Assembly (NCBI GenBank): GCA_020073325.1
Contig: JAIQFJ010000011.1
Span: 1 to 34,671, forward strand
From: Terriglobia bacterium
Lineage (GTDB): Bacteria; Acidobacteriota; Terriglobia; Bryobacterales; Bryobacteraceae
Reading direction: 5' to 3'
Length of the DNA stretch: 34,671 nt
Made by a program: the position numbers and the translations under genes. Below the pieces are notes generated by a model, which saw only the letters and a list, made by a program, of their open reading frames with translations, was not told the origin of the DNA and did no database searches. Below are positions 24,446 to 33,744 of this stretch, in pieces. Every line of letters begins with the position of its first letter. Positions within the stretch are counted from its first letter, which is position 1.

Positions 24446-24480
24446 AATAGGGTTGGGACAGACAATAGACTGTCCCCAAA

Positions 24481-24756
24481 ATGAACAATGATGCGAGTCG
24501 CGTCAGGCTGTCCCCATCAGCCCCCATCAGCCCGTCCCCATCAGCCCGCACGACTCAAGAAGTAGCACGCTGGCTCGGCCTCTCATCTCGGACGATTTGT
24601 CTTTGGGCTGAATGTGGCGAAATTCCGGGGTTTAAAGTCGGGCGTCAGTGGCGGTTCGAGGTTGACGCTCTTGAAACATGGCTTCGTGGGAAAGGAGGCG
24701 CGCTGGTTTCCCAGTTCTCGACCTACGCCCGCCCTACCCGGCGAAGTCAGGAATGA
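24481..24756 (+). CDS. Excisionase/MerR-like HTH protein
   Basis: A 91-residue protein with one HTH_17-type domain at about 23-72: TTQEVARWLGLSSRTICLW, then GEIPGFKVGRQWRFEVDALETWL, the wing phrase of DNA-binding excisionase-family proteins. The N-terminal 22 residues are encoded by a short repeat (CCCATCAGCC three times within 24513-24547) and look like low-complexity additions, so the true start is uncertain. It directly follows the RAYT fragment. No integrase lies beside it, so it may be a remnant or a stand-alone regulator. Confidence 0.65.
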   Translation: MNNDASRVRLSPSAPISPSPSARTTQEVARWLGLSSRTICLWAECGEIPGFKVGRQWRFEVDALETWLRGKGGALVSQFSTYARPTRRSQE

Positions 24757-27278: not shown

Positions 27279-27336
27279 GCTATTGCGCGCTCTACGTTGG
27301 CAACTCTCCAAGGGGGGGACAGCGGGGACAGATAGG

Positions 27337-27349
27337 ATGAGCGGGCTGG
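27337..27349 (+). repeat. IS110/IS1111 left subterminal inverted repeat
   Basis: ATGAGCGGGCTGG, inverted match in 12 of 13 bases to the right copy at 28858-28870. Confidence 0.85.
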
Positions 27350-27420
27350 CCCCCATCCAGCGGCGGTAAGCTCGCTGGTGAATAAACGCACTCCGTTGAG
27401 GGTGCAAAAGGAGACCAGCC

Positions 27421-28479
27421 ATGAAGAAGAATATCATCCCTGTTTCTGAATTTCCCGAATTGACCATTGGCCTCGATCTCAGCGATCGCACGTTCCAGTT
27501 CTGCGAACTCAACGCAACGGACGAGATCGTTAAGGAAGGCCAACTCAAACTCGACCGATCGACGCTGCGAAAGTATCTTGCTTCGCAGCCGAAGGCGCGA
27601 GTGGCGCTGGAAACGGGCGGACAATCCGCGTGGGTGAAACAAATCATCGAAGAGATGGGCCACAAGGCCGTGGTGGCGAATGCGCGCGAGCTCAAGGCGG
27701 TGACCGGACGCAGTCATCGCAGCGATCATCACGACGCGCGGCAACTGGCGCGATTGGCGCGCGTGGATTGCGCGTTGCTGAATCCGGTCCAGCTGCGCGA
27801 TGCGCACCAGCAGGCCGATCTGTTCGTGATTCGCGCCCGCGCGATCCTGCTGGAAGCGCGAACGATGCTGATCAACTTCGCGCGCGGCATCACCAAGAGC
27901 ACTGGGCAAAGACTGCCTTCCAGCGCCACGCATCGTTTCGCCGAGCGCGTGCGCAGCGCGGTGCCGGAAGCGCTGCGGCCGGCGCTGCTGCCGTTGCTCA
28001 ACGTGCTCGATCAAATCGCAATGGAGCTGGAGGGCTACGACGAGAACGTCGAAGCGTTGGCCGAGCAGCGTTACCCGGAGACGCGCTGGCTGCGCCAGGC
28101 GCCGGGAGTCGGCACTCTGACGGCGGTGACGTTCGTGTTGACGGTGAGCGATCCGGCGCGGTTCGCGCACAGCCGCGATGTGGGTCCGTTTCTAGGTTTG
28201 GTGCCGCGGCGCAGACAAAGCGGCGAGCAGGATCCGCATCTGCGCATTAGCAAGTGCGGCGATGGATACTTGTGCAAACTGCTGGTGCAATGCGCGCACG
28301 TGGTAATGGGCCGGTTCGGGCCCGACTGTGCGTTGCGGCGCTGGGCACTTCAGCACGCCCAGCATAGCCGCACGGCGAAGAAGCGCACAGTAGTGGCCGT
28401 GGCGCGAAAGCTCGCCGTGATGCTGCACCGCTTGTGGCGTGGTCAGGAGGTGTTTCAGCCGTTCCCAGTCGCGGCATAA
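27421..28479 (+). CDS. IS110-family transposase (DEDD recombinase)
   Basis: A 352-residue transposase. The N-terminal RuvC-like DEDD domain begins TIGLDLSDRTFQFCEL (first Asp), has VALETGGQSAWV (Glu) and SHRSDHHDARQLARLARVD (the paired acidic residues). A helical middle part follows. The C-terminal transposase_20 domain has RQAPGVGTLTAVTFVL, FLGLVPRRRQSGEQD and the terminal ISKCGDGYLCKLLVQCAHVV block, where family members have a conserved serine; here the position after GDGYL is Cys or nearby and should be compared. AGGAG precedes the ATG. The frame is intact, so the element could be active. These recombinases work with an RNA guide encoded by the element's own non-coding end. Confidence 0.92.
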   Translation: MKKNIIPVSEFPELTIGLDLSDRTFQFCELNATDEIVKEGQLKLDRSTLRKYLASQPKARVALETGGQSAWVKQIIEEMGHKAVVANARELKAVTGRSHRSDHHDARQLARLARVDCALLNPVQLRDAHQQADLFVIRARAILLEARTMLINFARGITKSTGQRLPSSATHRFAERVRSAVPEALRPALLPLLNVLDQIAMELEGYDENVEALAEQRYPETRWLRQAPGVGTLTAVTFVLTVSDPARFAHSRDVGPFLGLVPRRRQSGEQDPHLRISKCGDGYLCKLLVQCAHVVMGRFGPDCALRRWALQHAQHSRTAKKRTVVAVARKLAVMLHRLWRGQEVFQPFPVAA

Positions 28480-28857
28480 AGTTTTTTCAAAGGTGAGCAT
28501 CCTCGAGTTCTGGCGACTGCGCGAGTGTTCAGGCAGGACCGGCCGCGCCCAGCAGCCGAGCCCGTGGGACAGTTTGCAGCGCCAGCTTTCTAACCGGAAC
28601 CCCTCTTGCAGCGATCCTATAGCGGATCAACTCAGACTGCGCATGGAAGCCGGAGGCAAAGCTCAGAGCTCACCAACGGAAACGAGTTTCCGCTCCGCCG
28701 CCCGTCAAGTGCTGTCGGTAAAGCCGAACGGTGCTCGCCGGCAAGGGTTCGCTCCGCCGCGCTGACGCGCGCCCTTGCCTGCTGCGCTCCGTTCGGCAGA
28801 GTCGAAGTCGCGACGGGCGGCTCCGACGGAAACTCGAACCGATTTTGCTTGACAGTA
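28480..28857 (+). ncRNA. Candidate bridge RNA locus in the IS110/IS1111 right end
   Basis: The 378-base right end has no protein-like frame but strong nested base pairing. The outer stem is 28683-28706 with 28812-28836, the middle stem GCCGAACGG (28723-28731) / CCGTTCGGC (28789-28797), and the inner stem GGCAAGGG (28740-28747) / CCCTTGCC (28772-28779), with internal loops at 28732-28739 and 28780-28788 and a CGCG-CTGA-CGCG tip. Stems broken by internal loops are what bridge RNAs use to hold target- and donor-binding guides. GGGACAG at 28566-28572 repeats in the left flank. The RNA, its ends and the loops are inference from IS1111-group biology. Confidence 0.6.
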
Positions 28858-28870
28858 CCAGCCTGCTCAT
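28858..28870 (-). repeat. IS110/IS1111 right subterminal inverted repeat
   Basis: CCAGCCTGCTCAT, inverted match in 12 of 13 bases to 27337-27349. TTGACA lies four bases before it. Confidence 0.85.
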
Positions 28871-28873
28871 GGA

Positions 28874-29143
28874 AGTCCACTAGTTCCTTGAGCTGGGTCA
28901 CCGATCGATCCTGGGCATGCCGTTACCGAAAATGTCCGATATCGTTCCGCATAAAGGCAACTTCCCAGAACTCGACTTCTGGCTCGTGATCAGCAAATCA
29001 GATTGCTCGCAAACGATAAACACCGCTACTTTGCGCTTGACGGATTCTGCCGCCATTTCGCTAAGTGAACCGGCTTGCCCCAAGTCTCGTACAGATTCAC
29101 GATCCAGCGTCCGGCGCGATCGATTTGCTTTACGTCGGTACGA
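28874..29143. other. Unassigned stretch right of the IS element
   Basis: About 270 bases without a recognisable gene. On the minus strand an ATG at 29061 opens a frame of about 50 codons (MAAESVKRKVAVFIVCEQSD...) that ends near 28898. It has some protein-like character but no family I know. It may be the remains of a gene cut by the insertion sequence. Confidence 0.35.
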
Positions 29144-31314: not shown

Positions 31315-31390
31315 GGCCAGGTAGCTCAGTTGGTAGAGCGCAGCCCTGAAAAGGCTGGCGTCGGCGGTTCGATTCCGTCCCTGGCCACCA
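31315..31390 (+). tRNA. tRNA-Phe (GAA), CCA encoded
   Basis: A full cloverleaf: acceptor stem GGCCAGG (31315-31321) with CCTGGCC (31380-31386), D-arm GTAGCTCAGTTGGTAGAGC, anticodon stem CAGCC/GGCTG with loop CTGAAAA giving anticodon GAA at 31348-31350, and T-arm with GTTCGATTC. The CCA end is encoded. The 3' part of the gene is the likely attachment site of the integrase directly downstream. TAGAAT at about 31275 could be its -10 box. Confidence 0.96.
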
Positions 31391-31433
31391 CAAACTAAAG
31401 CACTTAGCGGCGACCAAAAACAGAGAGTTTCAG

Positions 31434-32579
31434 TCAACCGAACAATAGCCGAACATCCTCAACGGGCGTTCGCTTGTTCGGCATTAACATCTCCGCATTC
31501 TTTGCTTCCATCAGTCTCCAGATTTCCCGCGCCGTGCTGCCGGTCCGGGCGATGTGCGCCCGCGCCAGCTTGGCATAGCGTTCGGTCATCTTGATATTCG
31601 AGTGGCCCAGGATTTTCGCGAGCTCGTAAAGATCGCCGCCGTTCATCATGTACCAGGACGCGAACGTGTGCCGCAGATCGTGAAAGCGAAAGTTTTCGAT
31701 CATCGCCCGTTTGAGCAGATCCTCGAAACTCCGTTCAACGCGCTGTCGCCCACTGGTCGCGCCCGCCTTGGGCGGAAAAAGTCGATCCTCACCAATCACG
31801 ACGGGAAGCCGTCGCAGCTCGCCGGCAAGTTCAGGAGTCATCGGGACGTAACGCATTTTGCCGCCCTTCAGCTTCGCCCTTACCGCCAGTAGCCCCTCGC
31901 TGTACATCACGTCCGACCAGCACAGGCCAAAGACTTCTGACGCACGCATCCCCGTCGCGAGGGCGATGAGCACGATCAGCCTGAGCCGGAAGAACGTCTG
32001 GTTGAGCTTATTGGTTCCTTTGCAGTATGTTTTATCGTCGAGCGCTTGCTTCAATCTCCGAAGTTCGTCTTCGGAAAGGTACCGGTCTCGCTGATCATCC
32101 GGACGCTTCACTTCGACCAGGTCTGCGGGATTCCGGTCGATGCCGGTTTCCTTCGACCAGATCGTCGCGGCCTTCTCCATCATGTGATGCATGACGTTGA
32201 AGTGCCGAACCGCCGTGCCGGCCGATAAGCCGCGAACGGCGGTCAGATCTTCGTACCAGCGCGACACCGCGCTGCCGTCGACCTCCCGCACAAAGGCGCG
32301 CCCCAATGTTTCGCGGATGCCCTCGATCACGCTCTTCTCCCGGCTGGCCGAACGCTTCTTACTCCCGTAGTGCGTCCAGTAGCGGTCGAGTAGAGTCGAC
32401 ATCCGAAAGTTGACCTCGCGTTTGATATCGAGATGCCGGTTCTCATCGCGAACCGACATTTTCTTGCGCTCGATCTTCCGCGCGAGCTCGTACGAGCCGT
32501 GTACAAAAACGCTCCTGTTGTGACCTCCTTCCCTCCAACGGACCTCAAACAACCCATCGGATTTCTTGTGTATGGACAC
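31434..32579 (-). CDS. Tyrosine-recombinase integrase of a tRNA-Phe-borne genomic island
   Basis: A 381-residue phage-type integrase. It has an N-terminal arm-binding part (MSIHKKSDGLFEVRWREGG), a core-binding SAM-like domain at about 60-160, and a catalytic domain with Arg in GMRASEVFGL, HDLRHTFASW (His-x-x-Arg), LGHSNIKMTERYAKL (second His and the nucleophile Tyr). The GTG start follows AGGAG. The gene reads towards the tRNA and ends 44 bases from its 3' end, the classic position of an integrase beside its attachment site. The excisionase gene lies 15 bases upstream on the same strand. Island DNA should extend to the right. Confidence 0.95.
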   Translation of the reverse strand: MSIHKKSDGLFEVRWREGGHNRSVFVHGSYELARKIERKKMSVRDENRHLDIKREVNFRMSTLLDRYWTHYGSKKRSASREKSVIEGIRETLGRAFVREVDGSAVSRWYEDLTAVRGLSAGTAVRHFNVMHHMMEKAATIWSKETGIDRNPADLVEVKRPDDQRDRYLSEDELRRLKQALDDKTYCKGTNKLNQTFFRLRLIVLIALATGMRASEVFGLCWSDVMYSEGLLAVRAKLKGGKMRYVPMTPELAGELRRLPVVIGEDRLFPPKAGATSGRQRVERSFEDLLKRAMIENFRFHDLRHTFASWYMMNGGDLYELAKILGHSNIKMTERYAKLARAHIARTGSTAREIWRLMEAKNAEMLMPNKRTPVEDVRLLFG

Positions 32580-32594
32580 TCAAAGCTTCTCCTT

Positions 32595-32840
32595 TCAGTC
32601 AATGGTTTCGATCGTGTGCTGTTCAACGAAGCGCTCCAGCGCTTGCAGATCGAACCGCAATGCACGACCAACCTTGACGCAGGGAAGCTCCCGCAACCTG
32701 GCTTTCTTGTAGACCGTGTCCACTTCGAGACCGAGGTATTGGGCAGCCTCCCTGACATTCAGGAGCCGCCTACCGATGAGTCCATTAGACAACATTGCCG
32801 CCTTTTCGTCGTGAGCATGCCGATCCGTTTTTGGGTCCAT
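32595..32840 (-). CDS. Excisionase (HTH_17/MerR-like)
   Basis: An 81-residue protein with one HTH_17 domain: RRLLNVREAAQYLGLEVDTVYK then LRELPCVKVGRALRFDLQALERFV, the standard excisionase pattern. It sits 15 bases before the integrase gene, so xis-int are probably co-transcribed, and it would direct excision and bend DNA at the attachment site. The start could be ATG 32840 (MDPKTDRHAH) or ATG 32795 (MLSNGLIGRR), which has a GGCGG upstream; an open frame to 32939 is probably non-coding. Confidence 0.85.
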   Translation of the reverse strand: MDPKTDRHAHDEKAAMLSNGLIGRRLLNVREAAQYLGLEVDTVYKKARLRELPCVKVGRALRFDLQALERFVEQHTIETID

Positions 32841-32904
32841 GATGTTCTCGAAGCCAAGATTAAAACCGATCCGCGTGCAAAGCAACGAAATCAGTGGGAC
32901 AGTG

Positions 32905-33744
32905 GTGACAGTGGACGCCACGCTCCTATCAGCTTTCATTGATCACATCCTTCGGGATGTGGCGGAACGCCGCACGGACGATGGCGGGCAGCTGAAACGC
33001 GGTACGAGGCGGCGAATGCAAGTGAACGGACAGCTTCGCCGTCTGTTTATCCACGGGGACCACATCGCCTACCAGGGCGTGGAGAGGTTCCATGGCTCAG
33101 ACAGTGATTTCCGATTGACCATGGCCGCAACGGCAGCAGAAGCACTGGAGCGAAGGCGGATCGGAGAGAGCGGATACAAGGGCGCCGCGGCAGTTCTGGT
33201 GGCTGAGGCTATCCTGAGGTCGCCGAGTGAACGTCTTCGCCGTCGGTTTCTCAAGAGACGAAAGCAAAAAACCGACTTCGATGTTGTTCCGCTCAGCGAT
33301 ACGGTTCGAAGGCTCGTAGGCCGTTACCGCGATTCGCATCCGCAGTGGAGCGAGGAGTTCCAGTGCCAAATCGATCTGTTTCGGTCCGGGTATTTCCAGG
33401 ACGAGGAGTGGTTTCAGGAAGTTCAGGAGCGAGGCGAACGGTGGATCCTGGAGCTGCAGCAGCGCAAGAGGTTCGAGTGGTTTGAAGCGTCGAAGGTCGT
33501 CTCGATCGCCCAGATGTACCATCAGCGCCGGAAATTCGACGACGCGATGCGAGTGTATCAACGGGCGCTCGTAATTGCCGCGAAGGCCTTAATGACCGAG
33601 GGCTTGCACGGGCACCTCAGAGCTTGGCTTGAAAATGCATTGGATGCGTGTGCGAGAAGAGAGCCGCCGCTTCCGGAACTCGTTTATGCGGGCAGATGGG
33701 CACCGGAACCGGCCAATCGTGAAATTCATCGCAGACGATTTTGA
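32905..33744 (+). CDS. Island cargo protein of unknown function with a TPR-like segment
   Basis: A protein of about 280 residues, soluble, rich in Arg and Glu, and divergent from xis-int. I do not recognise a family for the first 200 residues. At about residues 190-225 VVSIAQMYHQRRKFDDAMRVYQRALVIAAKAL has the spacing of a tetratricopeptide repeat. Start choice is open: GTG 32905 gives the full frame, while ATG 33016 has GAGG at a good distance and would drop 37 residues. A perfect seven-base hairpin with a TTCG loop (32944-32961) lies between the two, so it could be in the leader if the later start is used. Being next to the integrase, it is probably island-specific. Confidence 0.6.
   Translation: MTVDATLLSAFIDHILRDVAERRTDDGGQLKRGTRRRMQVNGQLRRLFIHGDHIAYQGVERFHGSDSDFRLTMAATAAEALERRRIGESGYKGAAAVLVAEAILRSPSERLRRRFLKRRKQKTDFDVVPLSDTVRRLVGRYRDSHPQWSEEFQCQIDLFRSGYFQDEEWFQEVQERGERWILELQQRKRFEWFEASKVVSIAQMYHQRRKFDDAMRVYQRALVIAAKALMTEGLHGHLRAWLENALDACARREPPLPELVYAGRWAPEPANREIHRRRF

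What the first reader, a model, noticed from the sequence alone, without database searches (positions are those of the whole stretch)
28480..28873. Structured right end of an IS1111-group IS110 element: candidate new bridge RNA
The element has an intact DEDD transposase, subterminal inverted repeats (12 of 13) and a 378-base 3' non-coding end with three nested, near-perfect stems separated by internal loops. IS110-family recombinases use a bridge RNA encoded in a non-coding end, and in the IS1111 group this is the right end. The stems and loops here are seen directly; that they form a functional guide RNA is inference. The frame and both ends look intact, so the system may be active.
Basis: partly seen in the sequence, partly recalled or inferred. 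Interest (0 to 1): 0.8.

Follow-up and report, generated by a model that had tools for sequence, protein, structure and literature searches.

The report
IS1111 transposon with bridge RNA, hairpin
This soil-bacterium jumping gene carries a guide RNA of an already known kind that appears to choose its landing site, but the guide RNA lies beside, not inside, the striking hairpin that drew attention, and that hairpin resembles ones found in some unrelated mobile elements.

Summary
In detail: an IS1111-group IS110 element with an intact 352-aa transposase, 12-of-13 subterminal repeats and a long structured 3' non-coding end. A bridge RNA (seekRNA) is encoded there, but it is the inconspicuous stretch 28490-28662. 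The three nested near-perfect stems at 28684-28835 are a separate palindrome. A covariance model built from 41 relatives without the window finds 28490-28662 at E 2.9e-21 and nothing else in the window. Its stems covary (0 of 500 shuffles as high). Across 41 elements the two guide segments match each element's own flanks (0 of 10,000 permutations each). The window's guide matches its left target half; the right half fits only partly. An apparently unoccupied copy of the target lies elsewhere in the genome. The palindrome shows no guide-like match to the element's ends, and a comparable palindrome stands out in only a handful of 49 relatives' spacers. Its tip resembles hairpins in an IS21 element, an ISL3 element and plasmids. 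The bridge RNA is a new member of a known kind; the shared hairpin is the more unusual loose end, of unknown function.

The parts
27315..27331 (+). left half of the target site, GGGGACAGCGGGGACAG; its last bases GGGACAG are mirrored in the RNA
   Evidence: GACARCGGGGACAG occurs 3 times in the 6.5-Mb assembly: here, beside the C53 remnant, and on C255 without an element
27332..27336 (+). left terminal extension ATAGG (element start; boundary inferred, uncertain by about 1 base)
   Evidence: comparison with C53, C359 and the C255 site
27337..27349 (+). left subterminal inverted repeat ATGAGCGGGCTGG
   Evidence: 12 of 13 with the right repeat; similar repeats in relatives
27421..28479 (+). DEDD transposase/recombinase, 352 aa; D19, E64, D102, D105 and S267-G268 invariant in the alignment with 11 relatives (that these D/E are the catalytic ones is recalled)
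28490..28662 (+). bridge RNA (seekRNA) core
   Evidence: covariance model built without the window: 85.8 bits, E 2.9e-21, only match in the window
28510..28520 (+). 5' strand of target-loop stem CTGGCG-A-CTGC (pairs with 28576-28585)
   Evidence: compensatory relative to the family's commonest pairs
28522..28530 (+). T guide CGAGTGTTC, would pair with the top strand of the right flank; 6 of 9 by eye
   Evidence: family test 0 of 10,000 permutations; window scores 5 of 8, and 1 of 40 other flanks scores as high
28564..28572 (+). B guide GTGGGACAG, same sense as the left flank (would pair with the bottom strand)
   Evidence: fixed-register family test 0 of 10,000; window 5 of 5
28576..28585 (+). 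3' strand of target-loop stem GCAGCGCCAG
28608..28640 (+). donor stem-loop GCAGCGATCC...GGATC...CTGC; GCAG/CTGC replaces the family's commonest GCAC/GTGC
   Evidence: columns 202-240 of A3
28642..28649 (+). donor guide CATGGAAG, identical to 28868-28875 at the right end
   Evidence: first base concordant in 46 of 46 elements examined, 5-base identity in 43 of 46
28849..28854 (+). TTGACA, -35-like box inside the right end; probable half of a circle-junction promoter (inferred)
   Evidence: TTGAC within 25 bases of the right repeat in 45 of 49 elements against 10 of 480 background windows
28858..28870 (+). right subterminal inverted repeat CCAGCCTGCTCAT
28871..28878 (+). right terminal extension GGAAGTCC (element end, boundary inferred)
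   Evidence: GGAAG/AGAAG-like extension in relatives; C255 site
28879..28887 (+). right half of target ACTAGTTCC (C255 reads ACTAACTCC; C359 copy ACTAGGATC)

Best explanation
An IS1111-group element whose right end encodes a standard bridge RNA at 28490-28662. Shown by sequence comparison: a covarying target loop whose 5' strand (T guide) is complementary to the right flank and whose 3' strand (B guide) copies the left flank, and a donor loop that copies the right-end junction CATGGAAG. Inferred from published IS110/IS1111 work: the excised circle forms a junction promoter using TTGACA at 28849, transcribes transposase and RNA, and the recombinase-RNA complex brings the joined ends and a site of the form GGGGACAG/ACTAG together and recombines them. 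The palindrome at 28684-28835 lies between RNA and right end and is an accessory; whether it protects the transcript's 3' end or is a mere passenger is open.
For: Model without the window hits the window once, E 2.9e-21, and 35 of 39 other IS110-bearing sources not used to build it at E <= 1.4e-6, none in the IS21 control L147. 14 of 20 consensus pairs have compensatory changes; covariation 0.353 against 0.123 shuffled, 0 of 500, slid controls at most 0.093. T guide against own right flank 6.39 of 8 against 3.74 for other flanks; B guide 3.63 of 5 against 1.24; 0 of 10,000 permutations each, 41 elements. Donor guide follows the right end. Window B guide 5 of 5. Same target beside the C53 copy and without an element on C255. 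The model also reaches the right non-coding end of an ISAzs32-family element in Azospirillum, 29.1 bits, E 1.1e-7; ISAzs32 is one of six elements with a predicted bridge RNA named in a figure legend of PMC11208160 (passage seen).
Against: The window's T guide fits only partly. For this element alone the longest match of the RNA core to its ends and flanks is no better than shuffles (7 bases against a mean of 7.03, 204 of 300 as good), so the guide claim rests on the family and the fixed register. 4 of 39 held-out sources gave no significant model match (L073, L088, L108, L111). My first B-guide test showed no signal before its window was corrected. The first half alone does not fold better than chance to a striking degree (z -1.4). 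No transcript data; one intact copy only. In the 50 elements the core was located by its motifs, so '50 of 50' is partly by construction. Permutations and Fisher's test do not correct for relatedness.
Confidence: 0.9

Rival explanations
1. The palindrome itself (28684-28835) is the guide RNA or a second guide.
For: Very stable fold, z -7.4; lies in the right non-coding end of an IS1111 element.
Against: No match to the family RNA model; longest match to own ends and flanks 6 bases, shuffles mean 6.72, 290 of 300 as good; comparable palindromes stand out in few relatives; a related hairpin sits at the 3' end of an IS21 istB gene, an unrelated recombinase system.
Confidence: 0.04
2. The palindrome is a small mobile or exchanged hairpin (MITE-like) that entered the spacer of the element and has no function for it.
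For: L017's IS1111 palindrome is 79% identical over 138 bases to the IS21-borne one in the window's genome, E 4e-25; those two and L022 are bounded by CCCTTTCCCT/AGGGAAAGGG arms (by eye); absent from the related C359 copy (by eye).
Against: Only two detectable copies in the 6.5-Mb assembly; the window copy lacks the CCCTTTCCCT arms; no target duplication or empty site was looked for.
Confidence: 0.4
3. The palindrome is a functional 3' stabiliser or transcription insulator kept by the element.
For: Lies just downstream of the RNA on the same strand; related tips also sit just 3' of an IS21 istB gene and of a serine recombinase; stems stay paired while arm sequences differ (by eye).
Against: No terminator-like site found in 27300-28900; most relatives do without a standout palindrome; hairpins with a GTCAAGGG/CCCTTGAC tip also occur at ordinary genes.
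Confidence: 0.4

Closest known systems
IS1111 seekRNA (ISEc11, ISPa11, ISKpn4, ISPst6; Siddiquee 2024, PMC11187229; abstract and sections 6, 8, 9, 13 read)
   Same: RNA from the non-coding region downstream of tnp; top-strand match 5' of bottom-strand match; subterminal inverted repeats
   Different: diverged transposase and RNA, own target GGGGACAG/ACTAG; extra palindrome between RNA and right end; no experiment here
Bridge RNA of IS110/IS1111 (Durrant 2024, PMC11208160; passages seen)
   Same: target loop and donor loop, in the right end for IS1111; the model made here matches an ISAzs32-family element
   Different: sequence and loop lengths; that match is weak (29.1 bits)
IS21-borne hairpin on contig C142 of the same genome
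   Same: 77% identical over 75 bases to the inner palindrome, same kind of tip
   Different: unrelated recombinase system (istA/istB); the istB frame reads through the hairpin there

Membership tests
IS1111 group of IS110 | DEDD transposase with Transposase_20 domain | tested here: met
   NCBIfam NF033542 IS110 family RNA-guided transposase 199.6 bits, cut-off 140
IS1111 group of IS110 | subterminal inverted repeats (7-17 bp as stated in PMC11208160) | tested here: met
   12 of 13
IS1111 group of IS110 | longer non-coding region downstream of tnp | tested here: met
   378 bases, against 71 between left repeat and start codon
IS1111 bridge RNA / seekRNA | conserved, covarying RNA structure | tested here: met
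IS1111 bridge RNA / seekRNA | segments matching top and bottom strand of the target, top match first | tested here: met
   family 0 of 10,000 permutations each; window itself strong for B, partial for T; free search on the window alone not significant
IS1111 bridge RNA / seekRNA | donor segment matching the element end | tested here: met
   46 of 46 concordant at the first base
IS1111 bridge RNA / seekRNA | RNA made, bound by transposase, required for transposition | not testable with these tools
   needs experiment
palindrome as bridge RNA | match to family model or to own ends/target | tested here: not met
palindrome as MITE | terminal inverted repeats | tested here: inconclusive
   CCCTTTCCCT/AGGGAAAGGG arms in L017, L022 and C142, not in the window (by eye)
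palindrome as MITE | target-site duplication, empty site | not tested
   the nearest intact relatives found are about 46% identical in protein, too far to show an empty spacer

The most novel reading that the evidence does not exclude
A hairpin with a conserved tip (GTCAAGGGTTCGC...GCGCCCTTGAC) and freely varying but still paired arms is passed between unrelated mobile elements (IS1111, IS21, ISL3, a relaxase region, a serine recombinase, plasmids) and serves them by a shared mechanism not yet described, such as transcript 3'-end protection or insulation.
Probability: 0.2. Interest if true: 0.7.

Novelty: new member of a known kind. Interest (0 to 1): 0.42.

Why it matters
It corrects where the guide RNA lies in this element, so that any reprogramming work would use 28490-28662 and not the eye-catching stems. 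It gives 47 aligned RNAs with their element ends, from Acidobacteriota and other phyla, in which target, donor and stem covariation can be read directly. The shared hairpin, if its link to mobile elements holds up, would be a small exchanged part of unknown function.

Tried and rejected
Searching genome contigs with the single protein found no relative; the alignment query gave 80 loci. A first B-guide score that trimmed too much gave no signal (3.93 against 3.61, 272 of 10,000 permutations as good); after I corrected which bases were compared it gave a sharp peak at one of nine registers, so that test was set after seeing the first fail. Free longest-match search gave nothing for the core or the palindrome.

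The idea that the hairpin tip marks mobile elements in general was weakened. The relaxed pattern GTCAAGGGN{20,50}CCCTTGAC occurs 51 times (9 in one genome) in 396 Acidobacteriota genomes against 27 for the reversed control (my count from the table). Of its 30 loci I scanned 40 neighbouring proteins from 28 (one or two each; L171 and L173, known elements, not rescanned): mixed, many ordinary metabolic genes, others an istA/istB pair, relaxase, ArdC-like and GmrSD-like proteins. The strict pattern TCAAGGGTTCGCN{5,35}GCCCTTGA gave 4 hits, reversed control 0: the known IS1111 element L022, a relaxase region (Pfam), a serine recombinase (Pfam), and one beside a protein that I took by eye for a transposase but which matches only helix-turn-helix domains. 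In E. coli genomes the tip query matched 48 places, all on plasmids, none on chromosomes; of the 30 rows I saw, most are records of about 34 kb with the same 86.5% match, so perhaps one lineage. On plasmids the tip also lies beside no mobile gene, 0.85 kb from an IS6 transposase, or in stretches without annotation; L155 looked chance-like when folded. Letters of the tip: only two unrelated papers. Searches for papers on palindromes in such elements gave nothing I recognised as describing it from the listings. Rfam: only a tRNA in the window at gathering scores and one irrelevant weak match in the element. Exact joined-site pattern with GGAAGTCC: none.

Palindrome counts: by an ungapped inverted-repeat test on 49 spacers L022, L093, L105 and L080 stand clearly above 20 shuffles each and L068 slightly; the window (10) and L017 (11) only equal their best shuffle, because their arms are interrupted. 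By folding, of the 41 spacers of 40 bases or more the window (z -5.7) and L022 (z -9.3) stand out, L093, L105, L024, L080 and L125 lie between -2.9 and -3.5, and L017's whole 350-base spacer is at -0.3. L017 is counted with the palindrome group by its sequence match, not by these tests.

Rows dropped: of 84 entries examined (window, 10 loci, 73 of the 80), 50 had both repeats and were kept; A3 used 47 of these (L074, L021, L135 left out as near-duplicates), A4 41 (also without the window, L093, L106, L116, L122, L130), the guide tests 41 (near-duplicates and elements with short or N-holding flanks left out), the donor test 46 (without L074, L021, L135, L097).

Full report
What is there. The window (contig C179 of a 6.5-Mb, 93% complete genome) carries a 352-aa IS110-family transposase at 27421-28479 with both Pfam domains and the NCBIfam IS110 model. 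In an alignment with 11 relatives at 39-46% identity to it, D19, E64, D102, D105 and S267-G268 are invariant; that the D/E residues are catalytic is recalled, and PMC11187229 section 6 reports that the SG pair is needed in the related Piv protein. The subterminal repeats match 12 of 13. The solved relatives found by sequence are the IS621 and ISCro4 transposases, both weak (E about 1e-5).

Where the RNA is. I collected relatives from the phylum (11 of 396 genomes with a match) and from genome contigs (80 loci). Of 84 entries examined, 50 including the window had both repeats by my criteria. In all 50 a motif series could be located downstream of tnp (the search used the motifs, so this is partly by construction). 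The RNAalifold consensus of 47 has 20 pairs, 14 with compensatory change. Against shuffles the covariation is 0.353 against 0.123 with 0 of 500 as high, and slid partners give at most 0.093. A model built from 41 relatives, window left out, finds the window at 28490-28662, 85.8 bits, E 2.9e-21, and nothing else in 34.7 kb up to E 10. Of 39 other IS110-bearing sources not used in the model it finds 35 at E <= 1.4e-6, the remnants on C53 and C359 among them; L073, L088, L108 and L111 gave nothing significant.

How it reads its target. The bases after GACTGCG (T guide) match the reverse complement of each element's own right flank: 6.39 of 8 against 3.74 for other elements' flanks, 0 of 10,000 permutations; own flank best or tied in 32 of 41. 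The bases before GCAGC (B guide) match the left flank at a single register, 3.63 of 5 against 1.24, 0 of 10,000; my first version of this test was mis-set and showed nothing. The donor segment follows the right end: the first base agrees in 46 of 46 elements, all five bases in 43. In the window the B guide is 5 of 5 and the T guide 5 of 8, a score that 1 of 40 foreign flanks also reaches. Order and strands agree with the published seekRNA pattern for IS1111 (PMC11187229, abstract and section 9). For this one element a free search for matches is not significant.

The target in this genome. GACARCGGGGACAG occurs three times: at this element's left end, at the left end of the C53 remnant, and on C255 without an element, where it continues ACTAACTCC; the window's right flank after GGAAGTCC reads ACTAGTTCC and that of the C359 remnant ACTAGGATC. 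This suggests a target GGGGACAG/ACTAG and an element of about 27332-28878. It is read from few sites, so the boundary may be off by a base. C53 also holds a piece 89% identical to window 28557-28666 directly before the left end of a remnant.

The promoter. TTGAC lies within 25 bases inside the right repeat in 45 of 49 elements against 10 of 480 background windows. PMC11187229 section 8 states that the only promoter seen in its element was the one formed by joined ends; I infer the same here. I did not identify a -10 box; the linear scan found no promoter, which a split promoter would not contradict.

The palindrome. The nested stems at 28684-28835 are strong (z -7.4) but separate from the RNA, and show no guide-like match. 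Among 49 spacers an ungapped test singles out L022, L093, L105 and L080, with L068 slightly above its shuffles; folding singles out the window and L022; L017 joins them only by sequence. The window's inner part is 77% identical over 75 bases to a hairpin at the 3' end of an IS21 istB gene in the same genome (istA and istB confirmed by Pfam), and L017's is 79% identical over 138 bases to that hairpin, E 4e-25. Plasmid searches gave similar tips in an ISL3 element of Caballeronia and Paraburkholderia, between IS4-family and IS21 genes in P. phymatum, and in small plasmids and an IncN plasmid; others had no mobile gene close by or no annotation. The strict tip gave 4 hits in 396 Acidobacteriota genomes, three of them with a confirmed mobile-element gene beside them. 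The looser pattern is not specific to mobile elements. So a hairpin shared between IS families is shown; a general rule is not, and its function is unknown.

Verdict.

Noticed in passing
window 31315-32939: A tRNA gene beside a Phage_integrase-family protein (31434-32579, minus, E 4e-32) and a small helix-turn-helix protein (32595-32939, minus): a likely integrative element at a tRNA.
   Followed up: partly
L147 478-2652 (C142): The frame of the IS21 istB gene stays open through the palindrome at its 3' end.
   Followed up: no
L066, about 433 bases after the tnp stop: An IS1111 relative appears to be inserted directly beside a hairpin with a TCAAGG...CCTTGA tip, so such hairpins may also serve as targets.
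   Followed up: no
L148 7285-7340: The same hairpin tip occurs in a 9.7-kb viral contig; two of its proteins have no Pfam match, so its kind is unknown.
   Followed up: partly
E. coli collection: The hairpin tip matched 48 places on plasmids and none on chromosomes in 5426 genomes; the listed rows suggest few independent lineages.
   Followed up: partly
L169 1459-1620: A GTCAAGGG/CCCTTGAC hairpin lies between an istA-like and an istB gene in another Acidobacteriota genome.
   Followed up: no
window 24470-24515: Two more GGGGACAG copies on the minus strand, 38 bases apart; four in the window against 0.77 expected.
   Followed up: no
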